A stretch of 35,048 nucleotides of DNA from Planctomyces sp. (GCA_027483405.1 JAIXUU010000369.1:1-35048), one strand, 5' to 3'; shown: positions 1-9,614, numbered from the stretch's first letter. Program-made: numbers and translations. The notes: generated by a model not told the origin, from the letters alone.

Positions 1-1109
1 ACCTGCGCGATAGTGCTCTCCTGGGATTGCCCTGCCAGCACTCGACTCGCACTGATCACCACCTGATAGCCATAGCGAGCCGTCTCCTGAGGATGCTCCT
101 GTGCACTGGCTTCCTGGGGCTTGATGAACAGCCACTGGCATAAGCCACTCACAAAGGTCGCATGTGGCAGCGGAGTGATCGGTCGGTCATACCATAAGTG
201 AACACTTGAAATGGGTGCGGCTTCAAATTGCCTCGTGTGCGCGATGATCTCCGCCAGCGGGTTCTCATCAGGAAAGATTTCCCCCAATCGATACCACGGA
301 AGCGCCACAATCATTTCCCCCGTGGGAATCATGCGCGAATCACGCATTGTCAGGCCCGTGACTCGCCAGCCATTGGCCTGTGAATATGGATGATTCACGT
401 TACAAAGCTCGACTTTTGCGACACCTTGCCCCACTTCCACCAGCCCGTGGTTGGCTTCGAGATATTGCCGCACGGGCCCAGCCCAGAGTTCTTCCAGCGG
501 CTGCTGTGGAATCTCCACCACCCAGCCCTGCGGGTTCCGCAAGAAACCATCGACAAACACCTTCCGCGCCTGCTGCAGACCAATCCGATCCAGCGACTCC
601 GAAAGGGCACTGACCAGCACCACATTCCAGAAGTGATCAATCACCCGTGGTGGCTGATGTTGGCTCTTGAGCCCGTCGGCAAACGAGATCGCTGTTTCCG
701 TGGCGACTGCCAATCGCGACAACGCACGGCCCAGCGCCAGTTTTTCTGATATTGAAAGATAACTCAGCCGGAAGAATGCGCCCGCCAGATGCAGTGGAGC
801 CGGGAGGCGACTGGCGGCAAACTTCGTCATCTCCCCCTGGGGGCCAAAAAAGTAAAGTTCCCGCGCAGGTTCAAAGTGCTGCCGAATCCCCGTCATCTTG
901 CAGAAGCGAAAGAAGTTCGTGCAACAGCCCATGGCCACATGCTGGCAGTTATCGATCGCTTCACCCGTGACTTGATCGCGAAAGGAACTTGCCCGGCCAC
1001 CCAGCCTTGGACGCGATTCGAGGAGCCTGATGGGCACCTTGTGATGCACCAGCGCAGCGGCAGCCGCCATGCCTGCCAGCCCGCCACCCACAATTGTCAC
1101 TCGCTCCAC
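1..1109 (-). CDS. hpnE: HpnE-like squalene-associated FAD-dependent desaturase (3' end missing)
   Basis: The minus frame stays open from GTG 1109 to the left edge, about 369 residues, with the C-terminus outside the window. The N-terminus has the dinucleotide-binding Rossmann motif VGGGLAG (residues 7-13) and an acidic residue ending the second strand (E31, in LLESRPRLGGR). These are followed by IDNCQHVAMGCCTNFF (52-67), the DxxQHVxxGC signature I associate with HpnE, hydroxysqualene dehydroxylase, which with HpnC and HpnD makes squalene for hopanoids or related polyprenoids. This motif argues against protoporphyrinogen oxidase, a common misannotation of the family and tempting here because hemC lies 1.1 kb away. 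GGGAG about 10 bases upstream supports the GTG start; I see no in-frame ATG just upstream. It is divergent from comF. No HpnC or HpnD is in the window. Confident at family level. Confidence 0.82.
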   Translation of the reverse strand, partial: MERVTIVGGGLAGMAAAAALVHHKVPIRLLESRPRLGGRASSFRDQVTGEAIDNCQHVAMGCCTNFFRFCKMTGIRQHFEPARELYFFGPQGEMTKFAASRLPAPLHLAGAFFRLSYLSISEKLALGRALSRLAVATETAISFADGLKSQHQPPRVIDHFWNVVLVSALSESLDRIGLQQARKVFVDGFLRNPQGWVVEIPQQPLEELWAGPVRQYLEANHGLVEVGQGVAKVELCNVNHPYSQANGWRVTGLTMRDSRMIPTGEMIVALPWYRLGEIFPDENPLAEIIAHTRQFEAAPISSVHLWYDRPITPLPHATFVSGLCQWLFIKPQEASAQEHPQETARYGYQVVISASRVLAGQSQESTIAQ

Positions 1110-1259
1110 AGTGATTGCTCTCCCTGGCGAAGTCGCCTGGTGTTGAACCCCATTTGTTTCCGCAAGATTGTAGCGTATGCCGATCCATCGCGAGCGAAAC
1201 CGCCAGCCATGGGCAAATTTTGATTGCGAGAGCCACCGCTGCATTGTCGAATCCCGTGT

Positions 1260-2084
1260 ATGGATCAATCCTCCCAACACCAGAAACTCACCAACCCGCG
1301 ACTGCACCGCTGGAGCCGCACGTTGCGTGATTGGCTTTTTCCACCGGCGTGTGCTCTTTGCCATCAGGAAAGTGAGCCATCGACCAGTCATGCGGGCGGC
1401 TCATTTTGCCACGAATGTCGCGAGCAGTTGCATGCCGCCAGTGCCTGGTATTGCCCGCGATGTGGTGCTGTGGTCGGGCCTTATTCGGCCACCCATGAAG
1501 GCTGCATTCATTGCCGCAACGACCGGCTCGCCATGCAGCATGTCTGGTCGATCGGGAATTACGAACCACCTCTCTCACAGGCGATCTCTCGCGCCAAGCA
1601 GGGAGATCTCGCTTTGATTCAAGGCTTGACGGAACTCTTCTGGGAGATCCATGGCCTGGCGATAATCGCGTGGCAGCCCGATCTGGTGATTCCCGTTCCC
1701 GTACAGTGGATTGATCGACTGACGAGAAGTCGCATTCCCACTGATGAACTGGCTCTGCTGATCAGCCAGCGGTTGCAAGCAAAGCTCCTGCTGAGGGCTT
1801 TGCGAAAGCCACGACGCACCATCCCGCAGCATCAGCTTTCCGGGAAAGAGCGACGGAAAAACATTCGTCTGGCCCATCAGGCTGGCTGGCGAACACGCTT
1901 CACCAGCCAGAAAGTCTTGCTGGTTGATGATGTCCTCACGACAGGCAGTACAGCCAACGATTGCATTCGCGCGTTGCAAGCCAGCGGCTCCGGCCCGGTG
2001 GCGGTGGCTGTCTGGGGTCGCGGAATCGGTCAACAGCATACCCCACATCCTCAAGATGAGGCCTCATCGATCCCGCCCATCTGA
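1260..2084 (+). CDS. comF: ComF family protein (double zinc ribbon + phosphoribosyltransferase fold)
   Basis: A 274-residue protein. The N-terminus carries four CxxC pairs (C31/C34, C50/C53, C65/C68, C82/C85), enough for two zinc ribbons. The C-terminal half ends in the PRPP-binding loop VLLVDDVLTTGSTA (219-232), the hallmark of type I phosphoribosyltransferase folds, preceded by DLVIPVPVQW and the LSGKERRKNI segment usual in ComF. In competent bacteria ComF acts in the cytoplasm during uptake of transforming DNA; here only family membership is visible and no other competence gene is near. ATG 1260 is chosen because the homologous part starts right after it; a TTG at 1224 would add 12 residues. 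Neither start has a strong Shine-Dalgarno. Divergent from hpnE, 128 bases before hemC. Confidence 0.85.
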   Translation: MDQSSQHQKLTNPRLHRWSRTLRDWLFPPACALCHQESEPSTSHAGGSFCHECREQLHAASAWYCPRCGAVVGPYSATHEGCIHCRNDRLAMQHVWSIGNYEPPLSQAISRAKQGDLALIQGLTELFWEIHGLAIIAWQPDLVIPVPVQWIDRLTRSRIPTDELALLISQRLQAKLLLRALRKPRRTIPQHQLSGKERRKNIRLAHQAGWRTRFTSQKVLLVDDVLTTGSTANDCIRALQASGSGPVAVAVWGRGIGQQHTPHPQDEASSIPPI

Positions 2085-2212
2085 GTCGATTCGAACCCAC
2101 TTTTTCCCAGTGATCATTTCAGCGACAACGGACAATCCTGCCGAACTCGATTACACTGTGATCTACTGTTTCAACGGTCGCACGGTCTTAATTTGCTGAG
2201 AATGACCTTCCC

Positions 2213-3169
2213 ATGCCTGTACTTCGAATTGCCACGCGTGCGAGTCAGCTTGCACTCTGGCAGGCCAATTTTGTTGCGGATTCCTTACGATCGCTCGATC
2301 CTGAAGTCACTGTCGAGCTCGTGCATGTCACCACGACGGGTGATCGAGTTCAGAGTGAACCTTTGCGTCAATTTGGCGGGCAGGGCGTCTTTACTCGCGA
2401 AGTTCAGGCAGCGCTGCTCGATGGCCGAGCCGATATTGCAGTCCATAGCCTCAAAGATCTGCCGACTGTTCCCAAAGCCGGGCTGGAACTCGCCGCTGTT
2501 CCTGCGAGGGCACCGGTGGCCGATGCGCTGTTGTTACCCACAGGTCATTCCGGCCCCGCTTCGCTCGCCACGTTGCCTCGTGGCGCTCGGATAGGGACAG
2601 GCAGCCCCCGCCGGCAGGCACAGCTCTTGAGAATTCGCCCCGATCTGGTTTGCACCGAAGTTCGCGGCAACCTCGACACACGCATCAGAAAGCTCGATGC
2701 CGGTGAGTATGAAGGACTGGTTCTGGCGGTGGCTGGATTATCCCGCTTAGGCTGGAGTGATCGCATCTCGCTGATTCTTGAACCTCCCACGATGTTTCCG
2801 GCGGCTGGTCAGGGAGCCCTGGGATTAGAATGCCGCTCTGGGGATGAAGCGACGATCCGCTGGGTCAGCCAATTGGAAGATCGCCAGACACGACTGGCCG
2901 TGGATGCCGAGCGTGCCGTTCTGCGAACCTTGGAAGCGGGTTGCCATGCTCCCGTGGGGACGTGGGCCACTTGGAAAACGCCGGAAACTCTTCATCTGGA
3001 AGCGATTCTCATTGCACCCGATGGTTCAGAAACGTTAGCAGCTGCAAGTTCAATGCATCGGCCACTTGCTCAATACGGCGGTGCGAACGCTCTGGATGCC
3101 GCTCATGAACTCGGGGCGAACGTGGCCCACCTGCTGCTGAAACAAGGTGCCTCGCGGTATCTAGTGTGA
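2213..3169 (+). CDS. hemC: Porphobilinogen deaminase (hydroxymethylbilane synthase)
   Basis: A 318-residue cytoplasmic enzyme that condenses four porphobilinogen units into hydroxymethylbilane in tetrapyrrole synthesis. Visible family marks are the opening IATRASQLALWQA (6-18), HSLKD with the catalytic aspartate D82, GTGSPRRQAQL (128-138), EVRGNLDTRIRKLD (149-162), and LEAGCHAPVG (240-249), whose C244 should carry the dipyrromethane cofactor. Length and motif order are normal. The ATG 2213 start gives the usual N-terminus; the upstream bases are TGCTGAGAATGACCTTCCC, without a strong Shine-Dalgarno. Tetrapyrroles also feed cobalamin, which the NrdJ of this window needs, but no other hem or cob gene is present here. 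The call is firm. Confidence 0.96.
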   Translation: MPVLRIATRASQLALWQANFVADSLRSLDPEVTVELVHVTTTGDRVQSEPLRQFGGQGVFTREVQAALLDGRADIAVHSLKDLPTVPKAGLELAAVPARAPVADALLLPTGHSGPASLATLPRGARIGTGSPRRQAQLLRIRPDLVCTEVRGNLDTRIRKLDAGEYEGLVLAVAGLSRLGWSDRISLILEPPTMFPAAGQGALGLECRSGDEATIRWVSQLEDRQTRLAVDAERAVLRTLEAGCHAPVGTWATWKTPETLHLEAILIAPDGSETLAAASSMHRPLAQYGGANALDAAHELGANVAHLLLKQGASRYLV

Positions 3170-3356
3170 GATCGAGCCGTCAAACGCCGGGCCGTTGTAG
3201 CCATGTTCTCAGCTTCAGCGGCTGAAAGGGACGCTCTTAATGATCTCAAGGATTTTCGTTGACGGTGCTTACTAATACGGTTAGCGTCCAGGAGTTCATT
3301 GCTCACAGCGCTGGCGAGCATTTGATCCAAGACTCACCTGTCCCTGGGAGTACTTC

Positions 3357-4421
3357 ATGGATCTGCGCGCAGCGACTGCCTTCTGGCCCGAATTCAGCGT
3401 GATTCCCAAGCTGGCCTCCGTGCTGATCAGCAGCCTGCTGATCCTCTCAGCCGCTTTGAAATCGTATCAGTCACTGCACGATCTCCTCTATTTCGAGCCA
3501 GCCTGGAGTGCGAGCGCTTTCGAGCTCTTTTCGGTCTCAATCCTCGTCTTTGTCGCCACTCTGGTTCTGACCAACTTTCAATCCCGCGAGGTCTGGATCC
3601 TGGCGGCACTCCTGATGACGATCCTGGCGGCTTTTGCACTCTCGGCAGCACTCGCGGGGGAAACGACCTGCGGCTGCTTCGGAAAACTGAGCTTTCGCCC
3701 GTGGAGTATCGTGATTCTCGATGTCAGCATTATTGCGGTCTCCTATCTGTGTGCCATCGTTTCCAGGCCTCACTCGGGAAGTCTGTTGCGACCGGTGGCC
3801 CGAGCAGCGGGAGAATCGCTTCTCATGGTCACGCTGATGGTGCTGGCCATTGTCCTGGCGTTATCGATCAGTTGGCCGCATGCGATCTCAGCACAGGCGC
3901 TGACCAGCAGTCATCATCCCATCCCCGCCACGCCGATTGAACCCTCGGTGGAATGGGTCGAGGCCCGCATCCCTGTCCGCAATGTGCGCAGCACACCTGT
4001 GGCGATCGTCGGTAAAGAATCTGTTTGCGGCATCATTCTCGTGACACCGATTCCGCTCGTCATTCCCGCTCAGGAAACGATCTTCCTTGAGATGAAGTTA
4101 AAACTTTTTCCGCATGCCCAACGGGGCGATGGCTCGCTGGCGCTATTCATTGCCGATGAGTCTCACAATGGAGCAGAACTCGTCAACTCTTCTTCGTTCA
4201 GCGAGCTGAATGCGGTCAAGTCTCCCGGCCCGATTCAAAGTCCTTCGGCCGAAGCACAGCCTGTGACTGAAACAGTGAACTTGACCACGCTCCATCAGCA
4301 GCGGCTGCGCCAGGAGCGGCTCGTCTTTTCCGTGGTTCGAGCCTCGCCACCACAAGAGACCATGGCCGAGAAATCGAATGAGACCAGTGCAGAGAAGTTG
4401 ACAGGTGATTCTGTTCGCTAG
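3357..4421 (+). CDS. MauE/DoxX-like membrane protein with CGCFG motif and exported C-terminal domain
   Basis: A 354-residue protein with several membrane segments in the first half: about 15-36, 56-76, 79-100 and 118-137, and a further one near 155-175. TTCGCFGKL (C105, C107) lies between the third and fourth. This CGCFG loop is typical of MauE/DoxX-type redox-associated membrane proteins, which in the methylamine dehydrogenase system assist disulfide formation on a Cys-rich subunit. The second half (about 180-354) is hydrophilic, presumably outside the membrane, and ends in a charged tail after QERLVFSVVRASPP. ATG 3357 follows GGGAG by six bases. The next gene, 37 bases on, encodes a secreted eight-cysteine protein, which suggests a redox partner. 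A 35-codon relic of a second copy lies at 7061-7168. Family level is fairly sure; the substrate is inferred. Confidence 0.72.
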   Translation: MDLRAATAFWPEFSVIPKLASVLISSLLILSAALKSYQSLHDLLYFEPAWSASAFELFSVSILVFVATLVLTNFQSREVWILAALLMTILAAFALSAALAGETTCGCFGKLSFRPWSIVILDVSIIAVSYLCAIVSRPHSGSLLRPVARAAGESLLMVTLMVLAIVLALSISWPHAISAQALTSSHHPIPATPIEPSVEWVEARIPVRNVRSTPVAIVGKESVCGIILVTPIPLVIPAQETIFLEMKLKLFPHAQRGDGSLALFIADESHNGAELVNSSSFSELNAVKSPGPIQSPSAEAQPVTETVNLTTLHQQRLRQERLVFSVVRASPPQETMAEKSNETSAEKLTGDSVR

Positions 4422-4458
4422 GTGTATTCGGAATGTTTTGGAAATCAAAGGAAAACGC

Positions 4459-4758
4459 ATGAAAAGACTCTTCTCACTATCCGCCATTTGCCTCTGTGTC
4501 TGTGCGATCGCGCTGATCGCGAGCGTCTCTGCTGATGATCCTGTGAACGAAGAACCTGGCGATGATCCAACGACTTATGATAATCCTTCATGTAAAAACC
4601 CTTCGTATCATTGTCAACAGAGGGCGCGTCCCTGCAATCTTGGTAATCCGGAAATTTGCGGCGATCCGGTACCGCCAGCAACGGATTGCACCTGTGTTCC
4701 CACTCATGAACCAGAACCGACTCCCAATACGCCAGCCTGTTTCTGTCGAGCCACATGA
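4459..4758 (+). CDS. Secreted eight-cysteine small protein (copy 1)
   Basis: A 99-residue protein. Residues 1-25 form a signal peptide (basic MKRLF, hydrophobic core, cleavage probably after SVSA). An acidic stretch with DD, EE and GDD follows, then eight cysteines: C45, C52, C59, C67, C77, C79, C94, C96. The spacing C-x6-C-x6-C-x7-C-x9-C-x-C-x14-C-x-C and the local motif CNLG-x3-ICG recur in the protein at 7218-7529, so the two are homologous. An even number of cysteines in an exported protein suggests up to four disulfides. AAAGGAAAA lies just upstream of ATG 4459, and the downstream ATG gives a proper signal peptide whereas the longer frame from 4405 does not. It sits directly behind the MauE/DoxX-like gene. 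I do not recognise a named family; function unknown. Confidence 0.75.
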   Translation: MKRLFSLSAICLCVCAIALIASVSADDPVNEEPGDDPTTYDNPSCKNPSYHCQQRARPCNLGNPEICGDPVPPATDCTCVPTHEPEPTPNTPACFCRAT

Positions 4759-4885
4759 CGCGGCACACAGCAATAATGTATGCGAGTATGTCTATGTCAT
4801 TGCTGGTTGTATATTAACAACTCACCTCATAGATAATTGTTCGTTAAGTATCCGATCATTTTCACATTTAAATTGAGAGGTATCC

Positions 4886-5908
4886 ATGTGGCCACAATTG
4901 ATAGTGCTTCTGGCTTTAGTCTTAAGTCATATCGTGTGGCCATTTCATCAAGACATCCTGGCTGGCGACAATCGCGGAACAGCCAGCAGCTACAATTCAA
5001 GCTGGACACCAGAAAAACTCTATGAATGGTGGCAGATCCCTGCGATTCCAGATCGCTTTCAGGTGCGTATTTATGGCACATACCTACAAAACCCGGATAA
5101 GCAAGAAAGCACTAAAACAATCAACTCGGAGATGGGGGTTATGAAAAGCTATATGTGTGGAATCGATGAAATCGATGCCACATACCCTAAAACTGGAAAA
5201 ACCACTTTTTTAACAATGGCGAATCCCCATTATTCATGCAGTCTGGAGCGAATCAAATCTGAGCGTTGGGTCGCCAGGGCGCTCAAAATCAGAAAAGATA
5301 ATGACACGACCAATGTCGTCAATAACCTTTGTGATCGTATTCTCCGAAACCACTGGGGAATGAATATTGGAGTGCACAGACGACTGATTGAACCTGGAGT
5401 CTCTTTGAAACAACTTCCGAATGAAATCTGGAACAATGAGGAGGTGGAAGTGCTTGATGTCACATTCCCTCTGCTTCCTGAAAAAGAAAAAAATCCTTAT
5501 CAACCTGCAAACACGCCGGATCATGCCAGGGTTTACATTTCCCCAGAGCGTTCGTATTGGCCTGTACGCATCGATTATACGCTCGATTATAAATATGAAG
5601 GAGTCCCTTTTCATCGCGAGATCACGGTGGCCTTCGAAGACTGGCAGGAGATCGATGGACAAGTCGTACCACTCCGTAACAAAACCTGGGATCATGGAGC
5701 GCCGACTGTTAAATACCTTCCCAGTGGCGATTGCCTCATGGATGTTTCCAACTGGGACGCCCCCTTCCCCATGGAACAGGCGTATTTGACTTATTACGGC
5801 TTGCCAGAACCGGAGGGGATCTCCCGGGGAATGAGTTGGTGGTGGTGGGTGGTGATCGTTGCTCTGGGATTGGGCGTCATCTTCTTCTGGCGAAAACTTA
5901 GAGCATGA
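4886..5908 (+). CDS. Exported tail-anchored paralog A (YYGLPEPEG family)
   Basis: A 340-residue protein. An N-terminal signal peptide (about 1-27, ending near DILA) is followed by WWQIPAIPDRFQ and a long exported region. A pattern of beta strands, EVEVLDVTFP then HARVYISPERSYWPVRIDY then EDWQEIDGQVVPLR, recalls the LolA/LolB-like half-barrel, but this is only a resemblance. The end is AYLTYYGLPEPEGISRGMSWWWW, a 20-residue membrane span and the basic tail RKLRA. The end is therefore probably anchored with a short cytoplasmic tail. GAGAGG lies five bases before ATG 4886. The stop overlaps the next paralog as ATGAGC, so translation is probably coupled. The base composition looks AT-richer than that of the flanking housekeeping genes. 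No named family recognised. Confidence 0.8.
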   Translation: MWPQLIVLLALVLSHIVWPFHQDILAGDNRGTASSYNSSWTPEKLYEWWQIPAIPDRFQVRIYGTYLQNPDKQESTKTINSEMGVMKSYMCGIDEIDATYPKTGKTTFLTMANPHYSCSLERIKSERWVARALKIRKDNDTTNVVNNLCDRILRNHWGMNIGVHRRLIEPGVSLKQLPNEIWNNEEVEVLDVTFPLLPEKEKNPYQPANTPDHARVYISPERSYWPVRIDYTLDYKYEGVPFHREITVAFEDWQEIDGQVVPLRNKTWDHGAPTVKYLPSGDCLMDVSNWDAPFPMEQAYLTYYGLPEPEGISRGMSWWWWVVIVALGLGVIFFWRKLRA

Positions 5909-6058
5909 GCAGCATCCAGCGCTTCTCAATAAACTCATTAGCAATCGTCTGCATTTCTCTGTTGTCATCGCAGATTAGCGCGGCCCGTGATGACAATTCT
6001 CCAAAATCTTTAACTACTGAATCGCTTTTCGATCGCTGGAAGCTTCCAGCGCTTCCGG
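5750..6058 (+). repeat. 309-bp direct repeat, copy 1
   Basis: This segment covers the 3' end of paralog A and the 5' end of paralog B. It recurs with scattered substitutions at 6751-7059, an exact 1001-base offset with no visible indel. Identity is highest over the YYGLPEPEG and membrane-span codons. Confidence 0.9.
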
Positions 6059-6909
6059 ATCGTTTCCAGCTTGAGGTGAAGCGCACCATTCGTCTGAATC
6101 CGGAGAATCCGCAGGATCAGCGAGTCGCTACCACCATTGGACGTTACAAGTTCCAACCAGGGTATTATGTCTGTGAATCTCCCTCGCCTACTGGTGCAAC
6201 TAGTACAATAACCAGGCTCGTGATCTGTAATCCAGAGTATGCCGCTATGCTGCAAAAAATCGATAGTGGTCGCTGGGTCGTCAAAAGGCTGTCGCCAGGG
6301 CGAAATCATCCGCCGGAACTGACGGTCAACCCCAAAGCGATGCTCTCTCAGCATTCTGGTACAAATGTAGGTATTCGCAATCGTCTGAAAGAACCTGGTG
6401 TTTCCATCACCAAAACGTGGACGGAGAACTGGAATGGCGAAGAAGTCGATGTGCTGGATGTCGCCTTCCCCGAAGCTTCAGAAGAGCAAAAGATAGGCAA
6501 GGGGCCGATCGACTTTCCTCACTCGGCACGACTGTATTTCACAAAGTCAGAAACGTCTGGCCCTGCGCGAATGGAGTTTGAATTGAAATACACACTCGAC
6601 GGAAAAGACTATGTAAGGCCCCTTTCCTTTTCTTATAGTGAACCAAGTAAGGTTGGCGATTTTACACTTCCGTTGAAGTTTGAGGCGTGGCAATTATGGA
6701 GGATCTCCAGGAATGACATTCCCAGCGAGACAGCAGAATTAAACGTTGGCAACTGGGACACCCCCTTCCCCATGGAGCAGGCGTATTTAACTTATTACGG
6801 CTTGCCAGAACCGGAGGGGATCTCCCGGGGAATGAGTTGGTGGTGGTGGGTGGTGATCGTTGCTCTGGGATTGGGTGTCTTCTTCTTCTGGCGAAAACTT
6901 AGAGCATGA
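5905..6909 (+). CDS. Exported tail-anchored paralog B (YYGLPEPEG family)
   Basis: A 334-residue paralog of the preceding gene, starting inside its stop codon (four-base overlap). It has a signal peptide (about 1-27, ending SQISA), then DRWKLPALPDRFQ, NPEYAAMLQKIDSGRWVVKRL, RLKEPGVSITK, NGEEVDVLDVAFP, and the same terminal YYGLPEPEG, WWWW membrane span and RKLRA tail. The middle differs considerably from paralog A, yet the last 150 bases of the two genes are almost identical, and its first 150 bases are almost identical to the start of the broken copy at 6906. This pattern, constant ends with a variable middle, suggests recombination or gene conversion among copies. Probably exported and membrane-anchored; biochemical role unknown. 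Confidence 0.8.
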   Translation: MSSIQRFSINSLAIVCISLLSSQISAARDDNSPKSLTTESLFDRWKLPALPDRFQLEVKRTIRLNPENPQDQRVATTIGRYKFQPGYYVCESPSPTGATSTITRLVICNPEYAAMLQKIDSGRWVVKRLSPGRNHPPELTVNPKAMLSQHSGTNVGIRNRLKEPGVSITKTWTENWNGEEVDVLDVAFPEASEEQKIGKGPIDFPHSARLYFTKSETSGPARMEFELKYTLDGKDYVRPLSFSYSEPSKVGDFTLPLKFEAWQLWRISRNDIPSETAELNVGNWDTPFPMEQAYLTYYGLPEPEGISRGMSWWWWVVIVALGLGVFFFWRKLRA

Positions 6910-7059
6910 GCAACATCCAGCGTTTCTCAACAAATTCATTAGCAATCGTCTGCATTTTTCAATTGGTGTTGCAGATTAGTGCGGCCCGTGATGACAATTC
7001 TCCAAAACCTTTAATTATTGAATCGCTTTTGGATCGCTGGAAGCTTCCCGCACTTCCGG
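6751..7059 (+). repeat. 309-bp direct repeat, copy 2
   Basis: Second copy of the element at 5750-6058, here covering the 3' end of paralog B and the 5' end of the broken paralog. Similarity stops abruptly after CTTCCGG at 7059, the point where the paralog reading is replaced by a MauE-like 3' end. Confidence 0.9.
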
Positions 7060-7060
7060 C
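6906..7060 (+). pseudogene. 5' fragment of a third YYGLPEPEG-family paralog (C)
   Basis: The frame opens at ATG 6906, overlapping the stop of paralog B by four bases. Its first 50 or so codons match the start of B closely (MSNIQRFSTNSLAIVCIF, then SAARDDNSP, then DRWKLPALP). The match ends at 7059, after which the frame runs 17 foreign codons to a stop at 7110-7112. The rest of the gene, about 280 codons including the YGLPEPEG tail, is missing. If translated it would give a 68-residue exported peptide with no anchor. I read it as the left side of a deletion. Confidence 0.8.
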
Positions 7061-7168
7061 GATGCTACCAGTCGTCAAAGAGTCCGCCTGGAGCGGATTG
7101 AGTTTTCCGTGATTCGTGCTCCGGTCTCTCCCACCGCCACCTCTGTGTCGAGGTTGGCCATCCGCTGA
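7061..7168 (+). pseudogene. 3' fragment of a second MauE/DoxX-like gene
   Basis: In the frame beginning at 7061 the sequence reads DATSRQRVRLERIEFSVIRA and continues to TGA 7166-7168, 35 codons in all. It aligns with the end of the MauE/DoxX-like protein at 3357-4421, whose matching part is QQRLRQERLVFSVVRASPP. The shared core ER-(L/I)-x-FSV-(V/I)-RA sits at the same distance from the C-terminus, and an eight-Cys gene follows 49 bases later, as one follows the intact copy after 37 bases. Position and sequence together make a decayed second MauE-like gene the best explanation. The similarity is short, so a profile comparison should confirm it. Confidence 0.65.
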
Positions 7169-7217
7169 AGGGATTGTCTCTGAACGAAGAGTTTGTCACT
7201 CAACTAGGAAACTTGCC

Positions 7218-7529
7218 ATGCGAAGATTTTTCACCCTCGGTTTCGCCTGCTTTTGCCTCTCGACCGCCGCCTTCATCACGAGCGTTTGGGCCGATGACGG
7301 AGAATCGGAAGAAGGAGGTGGAGAAACTACCATTAACGATCTCTGCACCTTACCCTCATTGGACTGCAATAATCGAGGGTCAGCTAGTAATGGCGGTTTA
7401 ATGAATGCGTGTCACCTTGGTGCCGCGGGTATCTGTGGAAATGGCGTTAACCCTGGAACCAACTGCAATTGCGTCACAGCCCTGACATCCACAATTTCAA
7501 GAACAGACTGCTTCTGCGAGGTGAAATAG
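7218..7529 (+). CDS. Secreted eight-cysteine small protein (copy 2)
   Basis: A 103-residue protein with a signal peptide (MRRFF, hydrophobic core, probable cleavage after SVWA), an acidic and glycine-rich stretch, and eight cysteines: C43, C50, C65, C73, C83, C85, C98, C100. The spacing C-x6-C-x14-C-x7-C-x9-C-x-C-x12-C-x-C matches copy 1 except in two loops. CHLG-x3-ICG and NCNCV correspond to CNLG-x3-ICG and DCTCV in copy 1. Start ATG 7218 follows AACTAGGAAACTTGCC, where AGGA is a fair Shine-Dalgarno. Because only the cysteine framework and a few residues are conserved between the copies, a structural, disulfide-held role is likely. Function unknown. Confidence 0.75.
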   Translation: MRRFFTLGFACFCLSTAAFITSVWADDGESEEGGGETTINDLCTLPSLDCNNRGSASNGGLMNACHLGAAGICGNGVNPGTNCNCVTALTSTISRTDCFCEVK

Positions 7530-7701: not shown

Positions 7702-8718
7702 ATGCTGCGAAGTTGCAAAACTGCTATGCAGGTCGCTTTAATGATCTGCTTCTCTATAACATATAATCCGGCCTATTGTGAGGCTACACCTTCGCCGACC
7801 GCCTCTCTTCCGTCTCCAGTAACCCCCGTCTCACTGCAGCGATGGTGGAAGATTCCGAGCTTGCCGGATAAGTTCCAGTATTCGTTGACAATATCAACCC
7901 GTGTAAATCCTGAGAATACAAGTGATGTGCAATTTGCTTCCACCATAAGCCATGTGAAGAAAGCGGCGAGCTATCACATTATGGAGGATCCTTTCCCCAC
8001 AGGACCAAAAACGACTCTAACAAACTTGTTGATCCGCAACTCCCATTACGGGGCCTTATTGAAGCGGGTGAACAATGATCGCTGGGTCTTGACAAAGCTG
8101 GGACTGGGGTCAAATCTTCCGCCCGGCCTGAGTCGGGAACATGATTTCGACGAGTTGCCGCACTTAGGCCAAGCCGCCATCCTCCGCGACCGACTCGGCG
8201 AACCCGGTGTCCTGTTGAAGGAACTCCCGCGAGAAACATGGCGGGGTGAAGAGGTTCGGGTGCTCGAAGCAACCTTTCCCGATGTGCCTGAAGAGCGCAA
8301 AAAGGCGTTACTACCAATCAACTATACTCCTAAAGCCAAATTCTATCTCTCCTCCAAGGTCGATGGAGCACCTGTCCGTATCGACTTCGATTTGAATTTC
8401 AGTTCTAATGGGAAGTCGTATCATCGTCCGATCGCCCATGCGTATAGCGAATGGAGTGAACTCGATGGTTTGAACATTCCCTTGAAGGGTGAGATCTGGC
8501 AGTTGTGGATTTCACCCCTCGACGGACCGCCGATGCAGACTCTCACGTTCGACCACTCGAAGTGGGACGCCCCCTTCCCCAAGGAGCAGGCGTATTTAAC
8601 CTATTACGGCCTGCCAGAACCGGAGGGGATCTCCCGGGGAATGAACTGGTGGTGGTGGGTGGTCGCAGGATGTTTCGTTGTCGCTATCTGGCTGGGCTGG
8701 AAAAGAGTCTCGGTATGA
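7702..8718 (+). CDS. Exported tail-anchored paralog D (YYGLPEPEG family)
   Basis: A 338-residue member of the same family as the genes at 4886 and 5905. It has a signal peptide (about 1-28), a proline-rich linker (SPTASLPSPVTPVS), RWWKIPSLPDKFQ, NSHYGALLKRVNNDRWVLTKL, RLGEPGVLLKELP, GEEVRVLEATFP, the strand pair KAKFYLSSKVDGAPVRIDF, and EWSELDGLNIPLKGE. The end is YYGLPEPEGISRGMNWWWW followed by a membrane span with a different sequence and the tail KRVSV. The tail motif and its flank are nearly identical in DNA to A and B (8563-8663), while the body is divergent. The stop overlaps the start of the pseudopilin gene as ATGA, so the two are probably co-translated. Function unknown. Confidence 0.8.
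   Translation: MLRSCKTAMQVALMICFSITYNPAYCEATPSPTASLPSPVTPVSLQRWWKIPSLPDKFQYSLTISTRVNPENTSDVQFASTISHVKKAASYHIMEDPFPTGPKTTLTNLLIRNSHYGALLKRVNNDRWVLTKLGLGSNLPPGLSREHDFDELPHLGQAAILRDRLGEPGVLLKELPRETWRGEEVRVLEATFPDVPEERKKALLPINYTPKAKFYLSSKVDGAPVRIDFDLNFSSNGKSYHRPIAHAYSEWSELDGLNIPLKGEIWQLWISPLDGPPMQTLTFDHSKWDAPFPKEQAYLTYYGLPEPEGISRGMNWWWWVVAGCFVVAIWLGWKRVSV
8563..8663 (+). repeat. Third copy of the YYGLPEPEG tail-coding cassette
   Basis: About 100 bases matching 5750-5850 and 6751-6851 with only a handful of substitutions, coding for WDAPFPKEQAYLTYYG and the LPEPEG and WWWW residues. DNA conservation here greatly exceeds that of the rest of the gene. It stops at the first membrane-span codons. Confidence 0.8.
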
Positions 8719-9614
8719 ATCGCTCCGGCTTCACATTGATCGAACTGCTCGTCGTGATCGGAGTCATTGTTCTGCTGGTCGCCATCACGCTCCCCGCCGT
8801 CCAGTGGTCACGCCATGCCGCCAAACGTCTGGAATGTCAGAACAAACTCAAGCAGATTGGTCTGGCACTCCACACGTTCGAAGCGTCACATCGCCAGTTG
8901 CCTGTGGGCAAGACCGGCTTAAAAACTAATCCCAAACAGCATTCCATGTCGTGGATGATTCCCATCCTGCCCCATATCGAACAGGCCACTCTCTGGCATG
9001 AGTCTCAAGCCGCTTATCAGATGACAGCCAGTCCCTACGCGAACCCGCCTCATTATCCGTTTGCCCAGGTTGTGCCGGCGTATGTCTGTCCACTTGATGA
9101 ACGAGCGTCGAAAATTCGCAGTGCCTCAACGCTTGATGGAGGTTTCGTCGCCCTCACGAGCTACCTGGGAGTCATGGGAAGAAACCATATGACCGCGGAC
9201 GGTGTGCTGATCTTTGATCAAGTGATCCGGTTTTCTGATATGACCCGCGGCACGAGCCAGACCTTGTGCGTGGGAGAGCGTCCGCCGAGTCCTGATCACA
9301 ATTTTGGCTGGTGGTATACGGGAGTTGGTCAGGAGGGGAGTGGTTCAGCCGACATGCTGCTGGGAATTGAAGAGCGAGTGGCCCAGACGCCGCACAACAA
9401 GTTTATTACCGATGGTCATTGCCCGGACAAACCATATCCCTTTGCACCGGGCAGCCTCGACGAGCTTTGCGATTCCCTCCACTTCTGGAGCCTGCATGCC
9501 GGGGGAGGGAATTTTTTATTCTGTGATGGCAGCGTGCGGTTCATGGCGTATGAATCCGCCGAAATCCTGCCGCTCCTGGCCACCAGGAATGCCGGGGAGG
9601 TTCACGGAGAATGA
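8715..9614 (+). CDS. DUF1559-type pseudopilin
   Basis: A 299-residue protein with a type IV prepilin-like leader: MNRSG then FTLIELLVVIGVIVLLVAIT, where prepilin peptidase should cut before F6. The helix continues into ECQNKLKQIGLALHTFEASH, the usual DUF1559 opening. Near the end is HAGGGNFLFCDG, the H-x9-DG motif of this family, which is greatly expanded in planctomycetes. Such proteins are thought to be assembled or displayed by type II/IV-pilus-like machinery. ATG 8715 overlaps the stop of paralog D by four bases, tying it to the tail-anchored proteins as their last gene. A longer in-frame opening from 8505 is discounted because it would bury the leader. No pilus ATPase or platform gene is in the window. 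Confidence 0.92.
   Translation: MNRSGFTLIELLVVIGVIVLLVAITLPAVQWSRHAAKRLECQNKLKQIGLALHTFEASHRQLPVGKTGLKTNPKQHSMSWMIPILPHIEQATLWHESQAAYQMTASPYANPPHYPFAQVVPAYVCPLDERASKIRSASTLDGGFVALTSYLGVMGRNHMTADGVLIFDQVIRFSDMTRGTSQTLCVGERPPSPDHNFGWWYTGVGQEGSGSADMLLGIEERVAQTPHNKFITDGHCPDKPYPFAPGSLDELCDSLHFWSLHAGGGNFLFCDGSVRFMAYESAEILPLLATRNAGEVHGE

What the first reader, a model, noticed from the sequence alone, without database searches (positions are those of the whole stretch)
4459..7529. Conserved eight-cysteine framework in two otherwise divergent secreted peptides
Genes 4459-4758 and 7218-7529 encode exported proteins sharing C-x6-C-x(6 or 14)-C-x7-C-x9-C-x-C-x(12 or 14)-C-x-C and the motif C-x-LG-x3-ICG, but little else. 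Keeping only the cysteine framework suggests four disulfides and diversifying loops, as in toxins, effectors or structural cell-wall peptides. I know no family with this exact spacing.
Basis: partly seen in the sequence, partly recalled or inferred. Interest (0 to 1): 0.72.

Follow-up and report, generated by a model that had tools for sequence, protein, structure and literature searches.

The report
Exchangeable cysteine-rich peptide and partner cassette
The two small cysteine-rich exported proteins belong to a large, apparently undescribed class found across planctomycete bacteria, in which a probable disulfide-forming membrane protein is encoded next to a fast-changing peptide and its membrane-anchored partner, and the variable parts of both are swapped together as one DNA cassette.

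Summary
In detail: both genes carry the stated 8-cysteine spacing and CxLGx3ICG. "Otherwise divergent" is wrong: they are 41-42% identical full-length paralogs. They are one instance of a widespread planctomycete locus: a MauE-DUF1573 membrane fusion, then an exported Cys-rich peptide, then a ~340-aa exported protein with a conserved GLPEPxG-TM-basic tail, often followed by a DUF1559 pseudopilin. A Cys-rich exported ORF follows 38/42 fusions versus 0/120 other long ORFs in the same loci. Mature Cys number is even in 36/41. A double CxC tail occurs in 29/47 versus 2.6 in shuffles. No library tested knows the peptides or the partner; the partner is predicted to have a LolA/LprG-like fold. Mature peptide and partner ectodomain form one exchangeable block: between window and a sister species, DNA is 96-97% identical up to codon 39 of the peptide and from the partner's tail onward, with no detectable similarity across the 1.17 kb between. 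Gemmataceae show the same, and the block has lower GC3 across 35 loci. Best reading: MauE oxidatively folds an effector or recognition peptide inherited with a cognate anchored partner, as in toxin-immunity or pherotype cassettes. Architecture and cassette are shown; redox role and function are inferred.

The parts
3357..4421 (+). MauE-DUF1573 membrane fusion (N-terminal MauE domain with CGCFG motif, C-terminal DUF1573-like Ig domain), proposed disulfide-forming maturase
   Evidence: PF07291 E 5e-6 above cut-off; homologs from other genomes hit both PF07291 and PF07610 in 6/6; CxC(F/L/A)G conserved
4459..4758 (+). P1: exported 8-Cys peptide; 4459-4574 conserved signal/propeptide, 4575-4758 variable mature part
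4575..5740 (.). Variable cassette A (mature P1 + intergenic + ectodomain of GL-a), with no nucleotide similarity to the same place in G002, which holds another 1.17-kb block; 45.6% GC versus 57% in MauE
4886..5908 (+). GL-a: exported, C-terminally membrane-anchored partner with GLPEPxG tail
   Evidence: tail 98% identical to GL-b and to G002 GL-x, ectodomain 30-33%
5905..6909 (+). GL-b: second partner paralog directly behind GL-a (orphan-like); ectodomain conserved in G001 and G002 (88-95%)
6906..7059 (+). Truncated remnant of a further GL gene (start region only)
   Evidence: window 6750-7059 matches G002 at 94% across this stretch; no ORF continues
7218..7529 (+). P2: exported 8-Cys peptide; 7218-7337 conserved with G001, 7338-7529 variable
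7702..8718 (+). GL-c: partner paralog; predicted LolA/LprG-like ectodomain plus TM tail
   Evidence: AlphaFold model pLDDT 76; Foldseek best E 6e-9 to LolA3; VIA-align Z about 10 to LolA/DUF1329
8715..9614 (+). DUF1559 pseudopilin (H-X9-DG type); a DUF1559 gene follows in 15/32 loci
   Evidence: PF07596 E 7e-38 and TIGR04294

Best explanation
This is a planctomycete locus that makes an exported, disulfide-rich peptide together with a matched membrane-anchored partner. Shown by sequence: a MauE-DUF1573 fusion is followed by a peptide with a constant signal and a variable Cys-rich mature part, then by a partner with a variable ectodomain and a constant GLPEPxG-TM tail, and the mature peptide plus the ectodomain are exchanged as one block between constant flanks. 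Inferred: the MauE-DUF1573 protein, through its CGC motif, oxidises the peptide's thiols after export, perhaps beginning at the C-terminal CxC pairs. The LolA-fold partner then binds its own peptide at the membrane, protecting the producer (immunity) or capturing the peptide (self-recognition). Diversifying selection on this matched pair, as in toxin-immunity or pherotype loci, drives cassette exchange and leaves displaced partners such as GL-b behind as orphans. My weighting: a real linked system 0.95; cassette exchange 0.85; disulfide maturation by MauE 0.7; effector-immunity as the purpose 0.4.
For: Linkage: rule met by 38/42 fusions versus 0/120 other long ORFs, Fisher 7e-33; GL partner within 2.5 kb in 37/38; further loci from a separate collection have the same order, including two Pirellulales copies. 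Disulfides: even Cys number in 36/41, p 8e-7; CxC in the last 14 residues in 31/41 versus 6.7 shuffled; double CxC tail in 29/47 versus 2.6 shuffled. MauE has been proposed to form the disulfides of the methylamine dehydrogenase beta-subunit and occurs in candidate RiPP clusters (PMC7794033, read). Cassette: window-G002 match 1-4574 at 95.8%, none in 4575-5740, 5741-6854 at 96.9%; Gemmataceae L084 and L088 show the same breaks. GC3 medians over 35 loci: MauE 71, signal 75, mature 59, ectodomain 57, tail 67, other genes 71. Adjacent GL genes with no peptide between them occur, e.g. in the window, G002, L083, L096 and L124. Partner fold.
Against: No expression, secretion or activity data exist here. 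The peptide could not be modelled (pLDDT 48). The partner model rests on 19 sequences and its fold matches are moderate (TM 0.3-0.4; Z about 10). The correlation of peptide and ectodomain similarity across loci is weak (rho 0.36 versus 0.31 with MauE). In G001 a P1 with a related mature part is followed by GL-b, not GL-a, though that copy has a one-base deletion in its signal region. Cassette exchange alone does not show antagonism; surface antigens behave likewise.
Confidence: 0.5

Rival explanations
1. Self-recognition or signalling pair: the peptide is a ligand (pherotype) and the LolA-fold protein its receptor or scavenger, comparable in layout to agr or comQXP specificity blocks.
For: A contiguous variable block covering the mature peptide and the partner's outer domain with constant flanks is the layout I know from pherotype loci; RseB, a sensor, is among the fold matches.
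Against: After the TM helix the partner has only a short basic tail, so no signalling domain; no kinase or regulator is conserved next to it.
Confidence: 0.2
2. Variable surface or cell-envelope protein: the disulfide-rich peptide is a structural or adhesive surface component and the cassette exchange is antigenic variation under phage or predator pressure.
For: [quoted passage not shown] surface loci also show low-GC exchange blocks (own knowledge); a pseudopilin gene often follows.
Against: The peptides are small (about 75-180 aa) and match no Pfam family convincingly, YTV or other; a dedicated partner with an equally variable ectodomain is not needed for a structural peptide.
Confidence: 0.2
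3. Metal- or redox-binding Cys-rich protein (metallothionein-like or thiol carrier) served by the MauE-DUF1573 protein.
For: High Cys content with CxC motifs.
Against: Even Cys numbers, export, hypervariability and lack of conserved metal-site spacing.
Confidence: 0.05
4. Small subunit of an exported enzyme matured by MauE, as in methylamine dehydrogenase.
For: Shared use of MauE beside a protein with many cysteines (PMC7794033).
Against: No large enzyme subunit or MauD was seen as a conserved neighbour in the loci; no match to any solved chain, methylamine dehydrogenase included; hypervariability is unlike an enzyme subunit.
Confidence: 0.03

Closest known systems
MauE-dependent maturation of the methylamine dehydrogenase beta-subunit (Paracoccus; van der Palen 1997, cited in PMC7794033)
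   Same: A MauE-domain membrane protein next to a small exported protein with many disulfides
   Different: Here MauE is fused to DUF1573, the substrate is hypervariable, and no enzyme subunit or MauD is conserved
decRiPPter candidate RiPP clusters with mauE (Streptomyces, PMC7794033)
   Same: mauE beside a short variable peptide gene
   Different: No LolA-fold partner or cassette is described in the passages I read; the planctomycete peptides have Sec-like signals and a double CxC tail
Polymorphic toxin-immunity loci (CDI, Rhs; own knowledge)
   Same: Variable effector end plus adjacent partner exchanged together; orphan partners left behind
   Different: No toxin domain or delivery protein; the effector would be a disulfide-rich peptide
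agr and comQXP pherotype blocks (own knowledge)
   Same: Contiguous variable block spanning mature peptide and the outer domain of its partner, with constant flanks
   Different: The partner has no kinase or other cytoplasmic domain
LolA / LprG / RseB superfamily
   Same: Predicted fold of the partner ectodomain
   Different: C-terminal TM anchor with GLPEPxG motif; no Pfam match; ectodomain hypervariable
YTV cysteine-rich cell-wall proteins of planctomycetes (PMC8567305)
   Same: Cysteine-rich, planctomycete-restricted
   Different: No Pfam or other library match; small peptides in a MauE locus

Membership tests
MauE family (upstream gene) | PF07291 match above gathering score | tested here: met
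DUF1573 (C-terminal half of upstream gene) | PF07610 match above gathering score | tested here: inconclusive
   Met for the Gemmataceae-type homolog tabulated (31.0 versus 26.1 bits) and matched by all 6 members; the window protein itself did not reach it, although its tail aligns
MauE function as disulfide-forming factor | Loss of the gene abolishes substrate disulfides | not testable with these tools
   Role described as speculated in PMC7794033
LolA/LprG superfamily (GL proteins) | LolA-like fold | tested here: met
   Predicted model only: Foldseek E 6e-9, Z 8-10 with several LolA/LolB/LprG chains
LolA/LprG superfamily (GL proteins) | Pfam sequence match | tested here: not met
   0 of 19 members match a LolA-type family
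PEP-CTERM proteins | Match to NCBI PEP-CTERM models | tested here: not met
   Three window GL proteins had no such match at E up to 1
Described cysteine-rich peptide or bacteriocin families | Match in Pfam, NCBIfam or PADLOC, or to PDB sequences | tested here: not met
Polymorphic toxin-immunity systems | Variable effector end with adjacent partner behind a constant N-terminal part | tested here: met
   (architecture only)
Polymorphic toxin-immunity systems | Toxicity neutralised by the cognate partner | not testable with these tools
   no bench data

The most novel reading that the evidence does not exclude
A previously undescribed class of planctomycete specificity loci in which a disulfide-rich exported peptide and a membrane-anchored LolA-fold partner are exchanged as a single cassette between constant ends, with a dedicated MauE-DUF1573 oxidase folding whatever peptide is installed.
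Probability: 0.55. Interest if true: 0.85.

Novelty: categorically new. Interest (0 to 1): 0.74.

Why it matters
If right, planctomycetes carry a large, unread repertoire of disulfide-rich peptides, each with its own candidate partner and folding catalyst, in loci recognisable by their constant ends. That would offer a testable substrate for MauE-family proteins, whose biochemical role is still only proposed, a possible new kind of bacterial antagonism or self-recognition, and a source of stable natural peptide scaffolds.

Tried and rejected
P1 homology search beyond the genus gave only weak hits (E > 0.01), so family-wide work went through the MauE-DUF1573 neighbour. Distant MauE homologs in L125, L126 and L128 have no peptide behind them, so the link is a property of the fusion subfamily, not of all MauE proteins. 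DUF1559 was first thought universal but follows in only 15/32 loci. Literature searches for MauE were swamped by an author name; none of the searches surfaced a paper on such loci, but only open-access papers are held.

Full report
Observation. P1 (4459-4758) and P2 (7218-7529) carry exactly the cysteine spacing reported, share CxLGx3ICG, and are the only ORFs in the window that match even a relaxed form of the pattern. They are not "otherwise divergent": they are 41-42% identical end to end, and the mature halves remain similar when cysteines are held fixed in shuffles (0/2000). They match nothing significant in Pfam or NCBIfam. Among 59 related genomes only two others of the same genus, G001 and G002, have clear orthologs.

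What lies around them. Directly upstream of P1 is a MauE-domain membrane protein with a CGCFG motif and a DUF1573-like tail. Downstream are three ~340-aa exported proteins with a C-terminal motif YYGLPEPEG, a TM helix and basic residues (GL-a, GL-b, GL-c), a truncated further copy, and a DUF1559 pseudopilin. G001 and G002 also keep MauE beside a peptide gene.

A widespread locus. Distant MauE-DUF1573 homologs in other families were also followed by small exported Cys-rich proteins of unrelated sequence and then by a protein with GLPEPxG. A profile of the fusion hit 147 of 297 genomes of the class, many of them in one domain only; full-length fusions are most frequent in one family, which record titles identify as Gemmataceae, and several genomes have up to eight matches. 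Loci were chosen by the fusion, not by the peptide. Of 42 fusions with enough downstream sequence, 38 are followed by an exported ORF under 260 aa with at least six mature cysteines, against 0 of 120 other long ORFs in the same loci. A GL protein follows in 37 of 38 and DUF1559 in 15 of 32. Loci from a separate collection agree, including a Pirellulales contig with two peptide copies; distant MauE homologs (L125, L126, L128) lack the peptide.

Peptide features. Mature cysteine number ranges from 5 to 24 but is even in 36 of 41 (p 8e-7). A CxC lies in the last 14 residues in 31 of 41 against 6.7 in shuffles, and a double CxC tail is present in 29 of 47 against 2.6. In an alignment of 22 members only the first CxC of that tail is invariant. 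The 8-Cys framework is thus one genus-level form of a broader class whose common marks are the signal, even cysteines and the CxC tail. Mature regions diverge much faster than MauE (median identity 29% versus 42% over 124 pairs; shuffled baseline 25%). No member gave a convincing match in Pfam, NCBIfam or PADLOC, nor any PDB sequence match.

The cassette. Window and G002 DNA match at 95.8% up to position 4574, that is codon 39 of P1; nothing matches in 4575-5740; the match resumes at 5741 in the tail of GL-a at 96.9%. G002 carries a different block of the same length there. For P2 the match with G001 also ends at the end of the signal/propeptide, at 7337. In genome G161, paralogous units match at 92% before and 86% after an unmatched 1.3-kb block that runs from mid-peptide to the GL tail, and L084 against L088 shows the same. 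GL ectodomain and tail have separate histories: GL-b has the ectodomain of one G002 gene (95%) and the tail of another (100%). Over 35 loci, GC3 of the mature part (median 59) and GL ectodomain (57) is lower than that of MauE (71), signal (75), tail (67) and other genes (71); the four paired tests made have p < 0.001. The variable parts of two neighbouring genes thus behave as one exchanged block. Partners with no peptide of their own occur behind the presumed cognate one (window, G002, L083, L096, L124).

The partner. An AlphaFold model of GL-c (pLDDT 76, 19-sequence alignment) matches LolA, LprG, LppX and RseB structures (Foldseek best E 6e-9; best Z about 10). The match is moderate (TM 0.3-0.4). 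No Pfam family matches the ectodomain and no PEP-CTERM model matches the tail.

Mechanism. Shown: gene order, linkage, parity, tail motif, cassette. Inferred: MauE-DUF1573 makes the disulfides. MauE has been proposed to do so for methylamine dehydrogenase and is found in candidate RiPP clusters (PMC7794033). Also inferred: the LolA-fold partner binds its own peptide. Exchange as a matched block, retention of displaced partners and the lack of a cytoplasmic domain on the partner make effector-immunity the likeliest purpose, with self-recognition or antigenic variation as serious rivals. Planctomycetes also have YTV cysteine-rich wall proteins (PMC8567305), but nothing here ties the peptides to them.

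Limits. Signal peptides were judged by hydrophobicity, not by a trained predictor. Loci within a genome are not independent. Peptide-ectodomain covariation across loci is weak. The P1 copy of G001 has a one-base deletion in its signal region and is probably inactive. The literature held is open-access only. The label 'categorically new' rests on the failed membership tests and on that limited literature; the principle of an exchangeable specificity cassette is known from other systems.

Noticed in passing
L028:6120-9041 (G001): A separate locus in a sister genome has another exported 8-Cys peptide followed by two overlapping 407- and 433-aa exported proteins of the same general layout (TM plus basic tail), perhaps a second type of the same system.
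   Followed up: partly
L026:10198-10505 (G001 P1): The ortholog of P1 has a one-base deletion in the signal-peptide region that breaks the reading frame, and it lacks the GL-a partner found in the window.
   Followed up: partly
L084, L082, L088, L097 (G161): One genome has eight MauE-DUF1573 matches, several in tandem arrays with peptide and partner in each unit.
   Followed up: partly
L073:2968-3489, L072:4103-4627, L094:4789-5331: Stand-alone single-domain DUF1573-like ORFs lie downstream in several loci, between or after GL genes; role unknown.
   Followed up: no
window 6906-7217: Patchwork of a truncated GL start and a fragment shared with G001, evidence of repeated recombination at this locus.
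   Followed up: partly
L125, L126, L128: MauE-type proteins in a complete genome labelled Planctomycetes bacterium syqfu and in a MAG labelled Phycisphaeraceae have no Cys-rich peptide behind them; L125 and L126 look like the same locus, so the MAG label may be wrong.
   Followed up: no
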